Part shown: piece after piece, positions 3,378-56,473 of the stretch
Numbering within the stretch: the stretch's first letter is position 1
How the letters are laid out: each line of letters begins with the position of its first letter
Assembly (NCBI RefSeq): GCF_019891175.1
Contig: NZ_CP072600.1
Coordinates: 5,332,001 to 5,396,000 of the forward strand
DNA length: 64,000 nt
Source of the DNA: Leptothermofonsia sichuanensis E412
Lineage (GTDB): Bacteria > Cyanobacteriota > Cyanobacteriia > Leptolyngbyales > Leptolyngbyaceae
Direction of reading: 5' to 3'
Made by a program: the position numbers and the translations under genes
The notes under the pieces: model-generated
The model's input: the letters and a program-made list of their open reading frames with translations, nothing else
What the model was told of the DNA's origin: nothing
Databases searched by the model: none

Positions 3378-3508
3378 CCACGAAGACACAAAGGACACAA
3401 AGCAAGTTCCTGGTACTCTATACCCTCTGGTCAGGCTGCACCAATGGGTCTTAAAGCTTTCCGAAAACTTCCTCAGTCTGGGTTTGGGCTTTTCGGAATG
3501 GCTTTTAG
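3378..3508. repeat. B-family half with S-family element
   Basis: A CACGAAGACACAAAGGACACAAAG tract (B-family arm) begins near 3380. An S-family element follows at 3452-3508 (TTAAAGCTTTCCGAAAAC to TTTTCGGAATGGCTTTTAG). The right B arm is missing or too degraded to recognise. A short open frame here encodes the familiar artefact peptide HEDTKDTK and is not a gene. Together with the A and B families elsewhere, this fills the 325-base gap between the SPFH gene and the next gene. Confidence 0.65.
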
Positions 3509-4028: not shown

Positions 4029-4720
4029 ATAGAACGCTCCATAAATTTTTTTAAAACGCAGCCCAGACTGGACGATCACAGAACACTGTGCCAGGAAGTC
4101 CTGTTTTCCTGGTTCCTGCCTGGTTCAGGATTGAGGATCCCGTCCCATGCATTTGAATAGCGCACTTGCACAAGTGGGCAAATAGCGCCTGACTGACCTG
4201 GTAACGACCCTCAACCCACCAGCTACCCCAATCCTTAACATTGATTAACGTCTCGTCTGCCAGGGACGATTCAGCCGGGAGCAGGGAAAAAAGGAAAACT
4301 GGGTTTTACTTCTGTATCTATTTTTACGAAATTCAATTTTAAGCGCAATTTTTTGTTTTGAATTCCTGACTTTTCAATTTCTGACTTTTTACAGTCACAA
4401 ACTGGTTGGTTAGGACATAGTTACTGTTGAGGCTCCTGGTGAGGACTTAAGTCCTCACTACAAACGTCCTGACTAACCTGCGTATAGCTGGGTGGTTGGC
4501 TGACCGTCTGTGCTCAGAAATGAGGATTTATCCTGAAATTTCACCCCAAAGGCACGGGGAATACAGAACAATTTCTCAGTGCCCTCTGTGCCTCTGTGGT
4601 GGAATCATAAGTTTTTCGGTTTATTGAATCCACGATCCTCAGGATGCAAGTCTGATGCCGCGAACCTGATAAGTTATATCCGATGAAGATGAAATTCTGA
4701 ATTGAGAGGAGGTTTCAACC
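4029..4720. other. 690-base intergenic region with palindromes and an A-family repeat
   Basis: No gene is seen. A perfect palindrome GTGAGGACTTAAGTCCTCAC lies at 4439-4458. An A-family element spans about 4516-4644 (CCCCAAAGGCACGGGGAA ... CTCTGTGCCTCTGTGGTGG, then the conserved tail TTTTTCGGTTTATTGAATCC). A smaller palindrome CACTTGCACAAGTG is at about 4164-4177. The last 70 bases are the leader of the allantoinase gene. Confidence 0.6.
4516..4644 (+). repeat. A-family palindromic repeat
   Basis: Full-length A-family unit. It has ATCCTGAAATTTCACC, then a purine-rich arm, a short loop, the complementary arm CTCTGTGCCTCTGTGGTGG, and the tail TTTTTCGGTTTATTGAATC. The same arrangement with tail is seen at 29428-29550 and, in part, at 37430-37532. 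Confidence 0.7.
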
Positions 4721-16067: not shown

Positions 16068-16150
16068 TTCTGTAAATTTCATTACAGAGGCACGGAGAAC
16101 ACAGCGCAATTCCTCTGTGCCCTCTGGTTCTCTGTGGTAAGGTGACTAAT
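16068..16150 (+). repeat. A-family palindromic repeat
   Basis: ATTACAGAGGCACGGAGAAC and the complementary CTGTGCCCTCTGGTTCTCTG form a long imperfect stem between the convergent sensor kinase and ABC ATPase genes. It could double as a transcription barrier in this position. Confidence 0.65.
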
Positions 16151-19339: not shown

Positions 19340-19446
19340 TAGTGGTCTGTCAAATTAAATTTGACGGGTAACTGAATACTGAAAGGCTGATTGAAGTTAA
19401 ATTTTGAGGGTCTGCGACCCGTCAAAATTTTCCTGACGGAACACTA
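19340..19446. repeat. T-family MITE, 107 bp
   Basis: Same length as, and almost the same sequence as, the copy at 9243-9349, with TA at both ends and the same imperfect terminal inverted repeats. It sits directly between an A-family and a B-family element. Confidence 0.85.
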
Positions 19447-19566
19447 GTTCAGATTGCCAAAAATAACCTGCCAGTTTTGGTTTCAACCACAAAGACACAA
19501 AGCCCACGAAGAAACTTTGTGTCCCTTTGTGCCTTTGTGGTGAAAAACTTCTGCTGCAATGCACCA
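19447..19566. repeat. B-family repeat, uninterrupted copy
   Basis: Begins GTTCAGATTGCCAAAAATAA, then CAACCACAAAGACACAAAG, a loop CCCACGAAGAAAC, the complementary CCTTTGTGCCTTTGTGGTG and AACTTCTGCTGCAATGCACC. This is the cleanest uninterrupted B copy in forward orientation and serves as the empty-site reference for the S insertion at 25321. Confidence 0.75.
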
Positions 19567-24660: not shown

Positions 24661-25257
24661 ATGGCAGAAGAAACAACTCCCAACGGACCTGGTGAAAAGG
24701 CTCCCAGTTCTGCTGAACCCGGAACCCCCGATGTATCGGCAGAGACTCCGGCAACCAGTGAAAAGCCAGCCAAAAAACCTGCGGCTAAAAGATCTCCTAA
24801 GGCAACTGAACCAGGAGATGTCACAGCGGAAGATAAACCAGTTCCCAAAGCTGCCAGGAAAGAGAAGCCCCCTGCTGTTGAAGATAAACCCTTTGCCGAT
24901 TTCATTCAACAAGACTATTTGCCAGCTTTAAAGGAGGGTCTGGCAAAGCAAGGCATTCAAGATGTCGATCTTTCATTTGAAAAGAAAAAAATATCTGTTC
25001 ACGGCTTTATTGATGCGCCGGAGTGCTGGCAGGTGATCGGGCAGTGGGGCAGCAGCCGAAAGCAGCCCAGACAGTTTAACATTTACTTTCTTAAGGAAGA
25101 CATTCAAGGGGCGAAAGCCTTTTCCTATGCTGAAAGTGGTGGTCAGCCAAGCACCCTGGAGTCATTCTTGATTGATGAACGCAAGGTTACTCTTCCTCTA
25201 CTGGTGTTTGGTGCGCTGCAACGCCTGAATGCTCAGAAATGGCTGGTGCGAAATTAG
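24661..25257 (+). CDS. DUF2996 family protein
   Basis: A 198-residue protein with a disordered first third rich in Pro, Ala, Lys and Glu (EKPAKKPAAKRSPKATEPG). A compact conserved domain follows from about residue 75: DKPFADFIQQDYLPALKEGL, CWQVIGQWGSSRKQPRQFNI and LNAQKWLVRN at the end. This matches the DUF2996 family of cyanobacteria and chloroplasts, for which I know no established activity. AAGG precedes the ATG. It lies 149 bases after glgA in the same direction, so cotranscription is possible but not shown. Confidence 0.8.
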   Translation: MAEETTPNGPGEKAPSSAEPGTPDVSAETPATSEKPAKKPAAKRSPKATEPGDVTAEDKPVPKAARKEKPPAVEDKPFADFIQQDYLPALKEGLAKQGIQDVDLSFEKKKISVHGFIDAPECWQVIGQWGSSRKQPRQFNIYFLKEDIQGAKAFSYAESGGQPSTLESFLIDERKVTLPLLVFGALQRLNAQKWLVRN

Positions 25258-25432
25258 TGCAGGTTGCCGAAAATAACCTGCCAGTTTTAGTTTGAACCAC
25301 AAAGACACAAAGCGCACTAACAGCCTATCTGAAAAGCCCCAACTGTTAAAGCCCAGACCCAGACTGAGGAACTTTTCGGACAGGCTTTAAGAAACTTTGT
25401 GGTCCTTTGTGCCTTTGTGGTTATTTCTAAAG
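25256..25432. repeat. B-family repeat interrupted by an S-family element
   Basis: The B unit starts GTGCAGGTTGCCGAAAATAA and has its left arm CCACAAAGACACAAAGC at about 25297-25313. The right arm CCTTTGTGCCTTTGTGGTT ends near 25421. Between them, 25321-25390 is an S-family element (CAGCCTATCTGAAAAGCCCC to TTTTCGGACAGGCTTTAA). The flanks CACTAA and GAAACTTTG join to give the loop of the uninterrupted B copy at 19447, so S was inserted into B. Confidence 0.8.
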
Positions 25433-25471
25433 GTATTCAATTCTCGCTTCTAAAGGGGATCGCCATACACT

Positions 25472-25552
25472 GGCGCTGCTGAATAGCCGTATGAATTGGG
25501 ACGAAGTTTCAATTCATACACGCTCTAATTCATACCCAGATTCAGCAATGCC
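25472..25552. repeat. G-family repeat, about 81 bp
   Basis: Terminal inverted repeats GGCGCTGCTGAATAGC and GATTCAGCAATGCC, with inner inverted repeat GTATGAATT and AATTCATAC. It lies just 3' of the nrtD-like gene end. The core is nearly identical to 17705-17785. Confidence 0.8.
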
Positions 25553-25561
25553 CCATACACC

Positions 25562-26401
25562 TTACCCATCCAATACAAAGTAGCGATCTAGAAAATTTAG
25601 TGCGTGGTTGCGGAGTTCAAAGTATTCAGAAGACTCGCGGATTTGCTGGCGATCGCGGGGATGGGGAAAAGGCACTTCCAGGATTTCCCCGATCTGGGCA
25701 GCGGGACCGTTGGTCATCATCACAATTCGGTCAGACATGTAAATTGCCTCGTCTACATCATGGGTCACCATCAAGACTGCCTGCCGATGGTTTTCCCAGA
25801 TATCGAGTACCTGCTTTTGTAACTTGCCCCGTGTCAGGGCATCCAGTGCGCCGAAGGGTTCATCCATCAGTAGCATTTTGGGACGAATGGCCAGGGCACG
25901 AGCAATTCCAACTCGCTGTTTCATGCCGCCGGAAATTTCATCAGGATATTTGCTGGCCGCAGCGGTCAGGTTCACCATAGCCAGGTGTTCATTAACAATT
26001 CTGGATTTTTCACTATTGGAAAGACCTTCGAGCACTTCATCAACAGCCAGGCGAATATTCTCGCGCACGGTCAACCAGGGCAGCAGGGAGTAATGCTGAA
26101 ACACCATCATGCGATCGCACCCCGGCTTGCGAATTTCCTTTCCTTCCAGGGTCACCAGTCCGGATGTGGCTCGCTCCAACCCTGCTACGATCTTGAGCAG
26201 CGTGGATTTACCGCAGCCAGAGTGCCCAATCAAGGAAACAAACTCATCTTCACGCACGGTCAGGTTGATATCGCTTAATACAACAAACTCACCCCCATCG
26301 GGGGTTGCATAGGATTTTGTCAGGTTATTAATGACCAGAAAATCAGTTTCTACTGGTTGGCTGTAGCTGGTGTTGGCGGAATGCAGGGTTGATTTGACCA
26401 T
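25562..26401 (-). CDS. Nitrate/sulfonate-type ABC transporter ATP-binding protein (NrtD-like)
   Basis: The ATPase of an importer in the nitrate/bicarbonate/cyanate/taurine class. It has SLIGHSGCGKSTLLKIVAGL (Walker A), EISGGMKQRVGIARALAIRP (signature), LLMDEPFGALDALTRGKLQK (Walker B) and MVTHDVDEAIYMSDRIVMMT. It is 279 residues long, so it lacks the solute-binding-like C-terminal domain of NrtC and CmpC and resembles NrtD, CmpD or CynD. GGAG is 7 bases before the ATG. It is the last gene of a permease, binding protein, ATPase operon running leftward. Confidence 0.88.
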   Translation of the reverse strand: MVKSTLHSANTSYSQPVETDFLVINNLTKSYATPDGGEFVVLSDINLTVREDEFVSLIGHSGCGKSTLLKIVAGLERATSGLVTLEGKEIRKPGCDRMMVFQHYSLLPWLTVRENIRLAVDEVLEGLSNSEKSRIVNEHLAMVNLTAAASKYPDEISGGMKQRVGIARALAIRPKMLLMDEPFGALDALTRGKLQKQVLDIWENHRQAVLMVTHDVDEAIYMSDRIVMMTNGPAAQIGEILEVPFPHPRDRQQIRESSEYFELRNHALNFLDRYFVLDG

Positions 26402-28950: not shown

Positions 28951-29722
28951 CTTCAGTTCCTCAGTGTCAGGTGTCAGGTAAGATGAGCAGTCCTGGCTAG
29001 AGACACTGACGAGCCTGAAGCATTGCCAGTTATGGAATGCTGACTCCTCAGTCCTCCCTCAATGCTGACGGAGTTAGCTGACGGGCTAGGGCTGAGAGAT
29101 GCCCTTCAGGAAGGATAAAGGATGAGGGATGCAAGGATAAAAATTTGAATTTCTATTGAATTTCAAGCCTTTATCGTCTGATCCTCTGTTTCTTCCAGAT
29201 TCGCCCCAAAGGTTTGGGTCCTCCGCTCTACCACTTACATCAGTCTTATGGGTTCTCAAGTAAGCACAAGTAAGCGGTAGATTAAGCTGACTGGCTCAAG
29301 TTGTTCCCGACAATGTAACACATTTCATCTCTCTTCTGCCCTGAGAAGTGAGGAATTTATACCCTGAAATTTCACCACAGAGGCACAGAGAACACAGCGC
29401 AATAACTTAGTCGAGTGTCCTGGTGTTGCACCGAATCTGAAATTTCACCACAGAGGCACAGAGAACACAGCGCAATTTCTTCGTGCCCCCGGTGTCTCTG
29501 TGGTGGAACCCTCAGTTTTTCGGTTTATCTGATCCAGAATCCTGAGTACTAGAGCATCGGTCCAGAATTCCAAGAAATCGGATTTCTGGTGAGAAATTCA
29601 ACGAAACCTGGGCATCCGGTAGAAGAAATCCGATTTCTGTACCGGCGTTCTAGATTGCCCGGAAAGCTGTGTTACCTAGTGAATGATCCTTGTACAACCA
29701 ATCCAGACCCCAAGGATTCACC
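28951..29722. other. 770-base intergenic region with two A repeats and an inverted repeat
   Basis: No gene is seen between the divergent transporter operon and the secreted protein gene. Two A-family copies lie in tandem (about 29340-29408, left half only, and 29428-29550, complete). Near 29574-29588 and 29624-29638, AGAAATCGGATTTCT and AGAAATCCGATTTCT form a pair of inverted repeats. Promoters for both flanking genes should be in the remaining sequence, but I cannot point to them. Confidence 0.55.
29428..29550 (+). repeat. A-family repeat, complete copy
   Basis: GAAATTTCACCACAGAGGCA, the loop with GCGCAATTTCTTCG, then GTGTCTCTGTGGTGGAACCC and the conserved tail CAGTTTTTCGGTTTATCTGA. A half copy lies immediately to its left (29340-29408), ending before the second arm. 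Confidence 0.75.
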
Positions 29723-56337: not shown

Positions 56338-56473
56338 TAAAGCCTATCCGAAAAGCCCCAACGGCCAAAGCTCGAACCCAGACTGAGGAAGTTTTCGGAT
56401 AGGCTTTTAGTCTGCTTTGTGTCTTTGTGGTTCAACCTGAAACTGGCGGGTTATTTTCGGCAACCCCCACTAG
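56338..56473. repeat. S-family element next to a B-family half
   Basis: The S element spans 56338-56410 (TAAAGCCTATCCGAAAAGCC to TTTTCGGATAGGCTTTTAG). It is followed by the B-family right part in inverted orientation (TGTGTCTTTGTGGTTCAACC, then GGCGGGTTATTTTCGGCAAC and CCCCACTAG). The other B arm is missing, so this is again S inserted in or joined to B. Confidence 0.75.

What the first reader, a model, noticed from the sequence alone, without database searches (positions are those of the whole stretch)
25256..25432. Nested mobile repeats: an S element inserted in the loop of a B element
Seen directly: the B unit at 25256 has both arms (CCACAAAGACACAAAG and CTTTGTGCCTTTGTGG), but its loop is split by 70 bp whose ends are AGCCTATCTGAAAAG and CTTTTCGGACAGGCT. 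The B copies at 19447 and 47647 lack this insert and give the empty-site sequence. Two more S copies (3452 and 56338) also sit inside or against B halves. This shows that S moved after B spread, and that it may prefer the B loop. Which transposase moves S is unknown.
Basis: seen in the sequence. Interest (0 to 1): 0.6.

Follow-up and report, generated by a model that had tools for sequence, protein, structure and literature searches.

The report
Small transposon nested in repeat hairpins
A 67-base gene-less transposon sits at the same spot in the loop of many copies of another hairpin repeat in one hot-spring cyanobacterium, probably because it landed there several times, and the kind of enzyme that most likely moved it can be named although no working copy was found in this genome.

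Summary
The nested structure is real. S is a 67-bp MITE with imperfect inverted ends (AAGCCTATCCGAAAAG / AAGCCTATCCGAAAAC) and a 3-bp TTA/TAA target duplication. The genome's length equals that published for Leptothermofonsia sichuanensis E412. In 2.464 of 6.426 Mb I found 88 S copies and 52 B units. S sits at one position in the loop of 22 B units (GCAC-TAA-GAAAC or point variants), 17 in one orientation and 5 in the other; 30 units have no S in the loop. Filled and empty B copies share sequence subfamilies, and S and B distances do not correlate. This favours several independent insertions at one hotspot over a single B+S unit, but tree tests are weak and a right-arm variant is enriched in filled copies. 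Most S copies (66 of 88) lie outside B; repeat C probably did spread with S inside it. The likely mover is an IS5-family (DUF4096 + DDE) transposase: 886/889-bp elements with matching ends occur in a relative (very probably Kovacikia minuta); this genome shows no close homologue, only a remnant. Corrections: the window's two empty B copies have CGA, not TAA, in the loop; the S at 3454 is not in a true B; the focal B lacks its right end.

The parts
25255..25320 (+). left half of the B repeat, from its terminal TA (which also gives the TAG stop of the upstream ORF) to the TAA target in the loop
25297..25312 (+). B left arm CCACAAAGACACAAAG
25318..25320 (+). left copy of the target duplication TAA
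   Evidence: rule derived
25321..25387 (+). S element, 67 bp MITE with IS5-type inverted ends; left tip C instead of the usual A
25388..25390 (+). right copy of the target duplication TAA
25391..25421 (+). right arm of B (CTTTGTGCCTTTGTGG at 25405-25420); the right terminus of B is missing
56340..56406 (+). second S copy in a B loop, reversed relative to its B, flanked by TTA on both sides
56410..56473 (-). B left half next to that S; right half absent
3454..3504 (-). third S copy, 51 bp, TTA on both sides, beside a CACAAAG repeat that is not B
19444..19565 (+). B copy without S; loop reads CGA instead of TAA
47645..47767 (-). B copy without S; loop reads CGA instead of TAA

Best explanation
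S is a MITE: a 67-bp non-coding derivative of an IS5-family insertion sequence, moved in trans by that family's DDE transposase into T(A/T)A sites, which are duplicated. B is an older dispersed hairpin repeat whose loop often carries GCAC-TAA-GAAA. That TAA was a hotspot, hit several times and in both orientations in different B copies, so B and S are nested but not one fixed unit; some B+S copies may afterwards have been copied together, as most likely happened with repeat C. Shown: anatomy, position, both orientations, target duplication, filled and empty copies within the same B subfamilies. Inferred: transposase identity, the number of independent insertions (at least 2 unless S inverted in place, more likely 5 or more), and why the loop is favoured (a good local match, perhaps helped by the stem-loop).
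For: 88 S copies in a 2.464 Mb sample. Of 33 full-length S copies labelled 'other' by context (outside B, C, D and tandem arrays), 21 have TAA or TTA on both sides and 20 of these 21 agree, 11.3 expected, 1 of 10000 permutations as high. 22 of 52 B units hold S in the loop, 17 + and 5 -. No S at the arm TAA of B (46 of 48 left halves have it). Each of four named B subfamilies has filled and empty members; 9 of 52 left-half columns carry polymorphism shared by same-orientation filled and empty copies. Mantel r -0.07, p 0.63 over 19 filled units; nearest B neighbour in the same state in 26 of 48 against 23.9 by chance, p 0.34. Rates: B loop 15 of 26 full-length units (22 of 33 with partial filled units), intergenic ACTAAG 4 of 126, other intergenic TAA 23 of 15450. 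The loop sequence scores in the top 1.8 to 6.5% of TAA sites by the S target profile. Matching ends on 889-bp and 886-bp IS5-family elements in G006, Pfam DUF4096 + DDE_Tnp_1, NCBIfam NF033580; a remnant with the same kind of end in this genome.
Against: The AU test rejects one clade of same-orientation filled B copies only at p 0.04, and does not reject one clade for all filled B (0.13) or for S copies in B (0.11, 0.26, 0.16). With 3 independent insertions the excess over intergenic ACTAAG has p 0.022, with 2 it is lost (0.098). A GTTG variant in the right arm is found in 9 of 15 full-length filled rows but 2 of 22 without S, which suggests descent of filled units from each other, or looser pairing once S is in. 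S orientation at the TAA is 17:5 in B but 7:13 outside, p 0.012, which a copied founder would also give. Outside B, S shows no preference for hairpin loops. Two Kovacikia-type helper copies have TAA on one side and TTA on the other, not identical repeats. No intact helper found in this genome.
Confidence: 0.7

Rival explanations
1. One founding insertion per orientation made a B+S composite that then multiplied as a unit through B's own ends; the shared position is descent, not a hotspot.
For: Position is the same in the 21 left-half units aligned; small all-filled clusters in the B tree; AU tests do not firmly exclude it; GTTG right-arm variant in 9 of 15 filled against 2 of 22 rows without S; repeat C behaves this way: 7 of its 9 filled copies have S in the same orientation with the same S subtype or a one-base variant.
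Against: Filled hosts are nearly as diverse as full-length empty ones (14.1% against 16.1%) while S copies in them are less diverse (8.1% against 14.4% for their hosts, 15 same-orientation units); polymorphisms are shared between filled and empty copies; S and B distances do not correlate; two orientations exist.
Confidence: 0.22
2. S has no preference for the B loop; it only survives there because B copies are harmless intergenic places.
For: Only 2 of the 46 full-length S copies outside B loops fall inside coding-masked sequence, so selection against insertion in genes is strong.
Against: The arm TAA in the same B copies is not used (0), and full-length B loops with TAA are filled about 18 times more often than intergenic ACTAAG sites.
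Confidence: 0.05
3. B and S together form one larger element, and empty B copies are deletion products.
For: L089 (empty) and L039 (filled) differ at 2.4% of positions, which would also fit precise loss of S.
Against: 66 of 88 S copies stand outside B, many with their own target duplications; about half of the full-length empties lack the TAA; S occurs in both orientations.
Confidence: 0.03

Closest known systems
IS5-family (IS427-type) insertion sequences and their MITEs
   Same: S ends match those of 889/886-bp IS5-family elements in a relative that is very probably Kovacikia minuta CCNUW1 (same start coordinate on plasmid NZ_CP083583.1); T(A/T)A duplication; a two-ORF IS427-group element, ISPsp10, inserting at a TAA is described in PMC4133298 (passages seen).
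   Different: S shares only about 15-22 bp at its ends with the helper, and no close helper gene was found in its own genome. The IS427 label is my inference from the two-ORF layout; ISfinder was not searched.
Insertion sequences that target REP palindromes (ISPsy8, ISPpu9, ISRm22 and others; PMC1525189, abstract and Results section seen)
   Same: The repeat is broken at one exact base; ISPsy8 sits at the symmetry axis of a predicted REP hairpin with a 3-bp direct repeat.
   Different: There 100% of the copies of the type 1 ISs are in REPs; here 22 of 88 S copies are in B. The inserting element here is a 67-bp MITE, not a complete IS.
IS630-type MITEs
   Same: B has imperfect terminal repeats and lies mostly within CTAG-like flanks, by eye (IS630 preference for CTAG is recalled, from no call); E412 is reported as IS630-rich (67% of ISs; PMC8997340, passages seen).
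   Different: No convincing B-like end pair flanks the DDE_3 genes in the 30 of 150 loci scanned.

Membership tests
MITE of an IS5-family element (S) | short, non-coding, terminal inverted repeats | tested here: met
   67-bp consensus; 66 of 88 copies full length
MITE of an IS5-family element (S) | target duplication T-N-A | tested here: met
   20 of 21 copies with TWA on both sides agree; 12 of the 33 copies tested carried another triplet on at least one side
MITE of an IS5-family element (S) | ends shared with an autonomous IS that encodes the family transposase | tested here: met
   GAGCCTATC(C/T)GAAAAC on 889/886-bp elements; the ORF of the 886-bp copy matches DUF4096, DDE_Tnp_1 and NF033580
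MITE of an IS5-family element (S) | intact helper in the same genome | tested here: not met
   whole-genome protein search: four matches, 27-35% identity. In 35 fetched loci (of 46 PF13359/PF01609 matches) no convincing S-like end pair flanks the gene; L133 has a 4-mismatch hit inside another ORF on one side and a truncated S on the other. One remnant in the sample
MITE of an IS5-family element (S) | demonstrated mobilisation | not testable with these tools
   needs a transposition assay
REP-targeting element, 'type 1' of PMC1525189 | insertion at one exact position of the repeat | tested here: met
   same position in the 21 left-half units with S, with point differences in a few (L240 left GAA, L042 left TAG, L054 right CAA)
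REP-targeting element, 'type 1' of PMC1525189 | all copies lie in the repeat | tested here: not met
   22 of 88
IS630-type MITE (B) | ends shared with an IS630 element of the genome | tested here: inconclusive
   not found; 30 of 150 loci scanned
IS630-type MITE (B) | TA target duplication | tested here: inconclusive
   TA at both ends in most copies by eye, no statistical test

The most novel reading that the evidence does not exclude
The S transposition complex recognises the B hairpin loop as such, through its shape in extruded or single-stranded DNA together with the TAA, so that one gene-less element uses another family's dispersed hairpins as a safe landing pad.
Probability: 0.25. Interest if true: 0.55.

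Novelty: new member of a known kind. Interest (0 to 1): 0.35.

Why it matters
It gives a natural series of filled and empty copies of one site inside a single genome, with an internal control site, so that target choice of an IS5-type transposase (sequence or hairpin) can be tested directly. It also suggests two routes to nested repeats in bacteria: repeated insertion (B) and copying of a composite (C).

Tried and rejected
Considered and rejected: S as a mere intergenic survivor (internal control). A general preference of S for hairpin loops: not seen at 20 non-B sites against 500 local controls (p 0.63, 0.12 and 0.32 for three measures). A helper among own-genome PF13359/PF01609 genes: 35 loci fetched of 46 matches, no convincing end pair; generic terminal repeats of 23 of these loci were listed and none equals the S end, though L131 has a similar layout. 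Rfam on 25000-25700: two sub-threshold eukaryotic matches taken as chance. S in plasmid records: no match; B: one partial match, E 0.09. S in 57 other relatives: no match at E 1e-3, with at most 15 candidates scored per genome. B in the same 57: matches in 6, and none of the listed ones covers full B. Trees of S and B: most forks unresolved; fewest changes 7 for filled/empty on the B tree, 10 for B+ on the S tree. The first script loaded only the window and was superseded; an early B profile absorbed other CACAAAG repeats and was dropped for B-specific halves. In one search one copy (L066_14621) was labelled C by a loose pattern; it is not in C and was left out of the C clade test, which did not reject one clade (p 0.53). 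In one search occupied sites were written as TAA even where one side differs, and copies in C, D and tandem arrays are included. The 22-of-32 figure mixed partial filled units with full-length empties; one search gives the like-for-like count. Literature searches; no listing showed a bacterial MITE hotspot in another repeat's loop, which says nothing about papers outside the open library. Passages only were seen of PMC10969869 and PMC2246112; neither uses the word nested in its main text.

Full report
What is there. At 25255-25421 the left part of a dispersed hairpin repeat (B) carries both arms, and its loop is split by 67 bp (25321-25387) flanked by TAA on both sides. The arm and S-end motifs occur above chance in the window. 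B here lacks its right terminus. The unit lies between two convergent genes: an upstream ORF with a DUF2996 domain, whose TAG stop is formed by the first bases of B, and an ABC-transporter ATPase gene on the other strand. As RNA the nested unit folds better than shuffles (z -4.45); the intact B at 19480-19548 folds as DNA at z -6.22.

Genome and sample. The window is part of a single 6,426,061-bp contig. This equals the length reported for Leptothermofonsia sichuanensis E412, whose paper reports 431 ISs, 67% of them IS630 (PMC8997340, passages).

S. nhmmer found 88 S copies, 66 of them full length; the whole-genome first look gave 226 candidates for a 73-base query, of which 15 were scored. 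Comparing a filled B with an empty TAA-bearing one fixes the element as AAGCC...GGCTT with a 3-bp duplication. Of 33 full-length copies outside B, C, D and tandem arrays, 21 have TAA or TTA on both sides and in 20 of these 21 the two sides agree (11.3 expected; 1 of 10000 permutations); the other 12 have another triplet on at least one side. Twenty sites with agreeing sides gave a consensus of roughly A-(C/T)-TAA-G-T; the B loop scores in the top 1.8 to 6.5% of TAA sites.

S in B. 52 B units were found: 38 with both halves, 10 left-only, 4 right-only. S lies in the loop of 22 (17 in the B orientation, 5 reversed). In the 21 of these that have a left half, S starts at the same position, GCAC-TAA-GAAAC with point differences in a few; the 22nd (L092) has only the right half. 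In L106 and L240 other sequence separates S from the right half. 30 units have no S in the loop; one of them, L043, has S just outside its left end. Of 22 full-length rows without S, 10 have the loop TAA by pattern and L043 has it by reading. The TAA in the B left arm, present in 46 of 48 left halves, carries no S.

One insertion or many. Two orientations at one site need at least two insertions, unless S inverted in place. Filled hosts are almost as diverse as full-length empty copies (14.1% and 16.1%; all empties, with partial ones, 19.7%), each of four named B subfamilies has members of both states (17 of 48 left halves fit none of the four), and 9 of 52 left-half columns share polymorphism between same-orientation filled and empty copies. 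Across 19 filled units, distances of B and of the S inside it do not correlate (r -0.07, p 0.63), and a B copy's nearest relative is in the same state in 26 of 48 cases against 23.9 by chance. Against this, AU tests reject a single clade only for same-orientation filled B (p 0.04) and not for the other sets of B or S (0.11 to 0.26); a GTTG right-arm variant is in 9 of 15 full-length filled rows and 2 of 22 without S; and the S orientation in B differs from that outside (p 0.012). Copying of some B+S units would explain the last two. I conclude several independent insertions with some later copying, at confidence 0.7 (lowered slightly from a draft 0.72 after the GTTG count).

How strong is the hotspot. 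Outside B, full-length S copies occupy 23 of 15450 ordinary intergenic TAA sites, 17 of 1879 other (C/T)TAAG sites and 4 of 126 ACTAAG sites; 2 of about 34,000 TAA sites in coding-masked sequence carry S (copies in C, D and tandem arrays are included, and sites with one deviating side were written as TAA). In full-length B loops with TAA it is 15 of 26, or 22 of 33 with partial filled units. If only 7 insertions are independent the excess over intergenic ACTAAG remains (p 4e-5), with 3 p is 0.022, with 2 it is lost (0.098). S does not favour hairpin loops elsewhere, so whether the stem-loop itself matters at B is open.

Other nests. Repeat C has 14 copies in the sample, 9 with S and 5 without (one of the 5 lacks the site; the other 4 read CACTTGAG instead of CATTAG). 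Seven fillings have one orientation and the same S subtype or a one-base variant; two are reversed, truncated and share one junction. Here the composite most likely spread as a unit. A third context (D) is shared by the S copies at window 3454, L119 and L112.

Who moves S. The S end, often as GAGCC, occurs in several family relatives. In G006 it bounds 889-bp and 886-bp elements. The 154-aa ORF of the 886-bp copy (L185) matches Pfam DUF4096 and DDE_Tnp_1 and NCBIfam NF033580, IS5 family; the 889-bp copy (L208) has adjoining ORFs of 171 and 71 aa. The two copies are flanked by TAA on one side and TTA on the other. G006 is very probably Kovacikia minuta CCNUW1, since the match starts at the same coordinate on plasmid NZ_CP083583.1. 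The window's genome has no close homologue (four matches, 27-35% identity) but holds a remnant: an S-like end (GGGTCTATCCGAAAAC) and, from 48 bp after its start, 141 nt at 73% identity to the 5' part of that IS with the same spacing, at about 429,644-429,830. S was not found in the other 57 relatives, so its expansion looks specific to this species as far as sampled; MITE-like elements with similar ends but other interiors do occur in G001 and G006 and, in named genomes, in Pirellula, another planctomycete, Latescibacterota and others (31 stretches), where 12 of 33 copies have identical TTA or TAA on both sides.

Placement. The parts are of known kinds: an IS5-type MITE and a hairpin repeat. 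ISs that break REP palindromes at one exact base, including at a hairpin's symmetry axis, are published (PMC1525189, abstract and Results). The present case differs in that the inserting element is a MITE and that only a quarter of its copies use the hotspot.

Noticed in passing
25255-25257: The TAG stop codon of the upstream DUF2996 ORF (24661-25257) is formed by the first bases of B.
   Followed up: partly
L084:13379-13714: Tandem array of S copies, four complete and one partial (also two adjoining copies in L083:7418-7556).
   Followed up: no
25465-25560: A further palindromic repeat (gctgaatagccgtatga...) right after the unit; a similar one lies in L133 near 2800-2875 (by eye).
   Followed up: no
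L076:1358-1486, L041:13807-13934, L035:17105-17218 and others: Repeat C (gctctgcgtgggaatg...cggcagagccgc) with S inside, apparently multiplied as a composite; two copies carry a reversed, truncated S with the same junction.
   Followed up: partly
L307-L337: MITEs of 57-80 bp with the same IS5-type ends in Planctomycetota, Latescibacterota, Bacteroidota, Ignavibacteria and Armatimonadetes.
   Followed up: partly
G000, whole genome: 150 DDE_3 (IS630-type) transposase matches in one 6.4-Mb genome.
   Followed up: partly
B units of the sample: A GTTG variant of the right arm, which breaks one stem pair, is in 9 of 15 full-length filled B rows but 2 of 22 without S; unexplained (descent, relaxed pairing or preference).
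   Followed up: partly
4533-4633, 29360-29536, 16071-16143: Many CACAGAG/CACAAAG hairpin repeats related to the B arms but without B ends; the hairpin core also matches in 6 of 57 other relatives.
   Followed up: no
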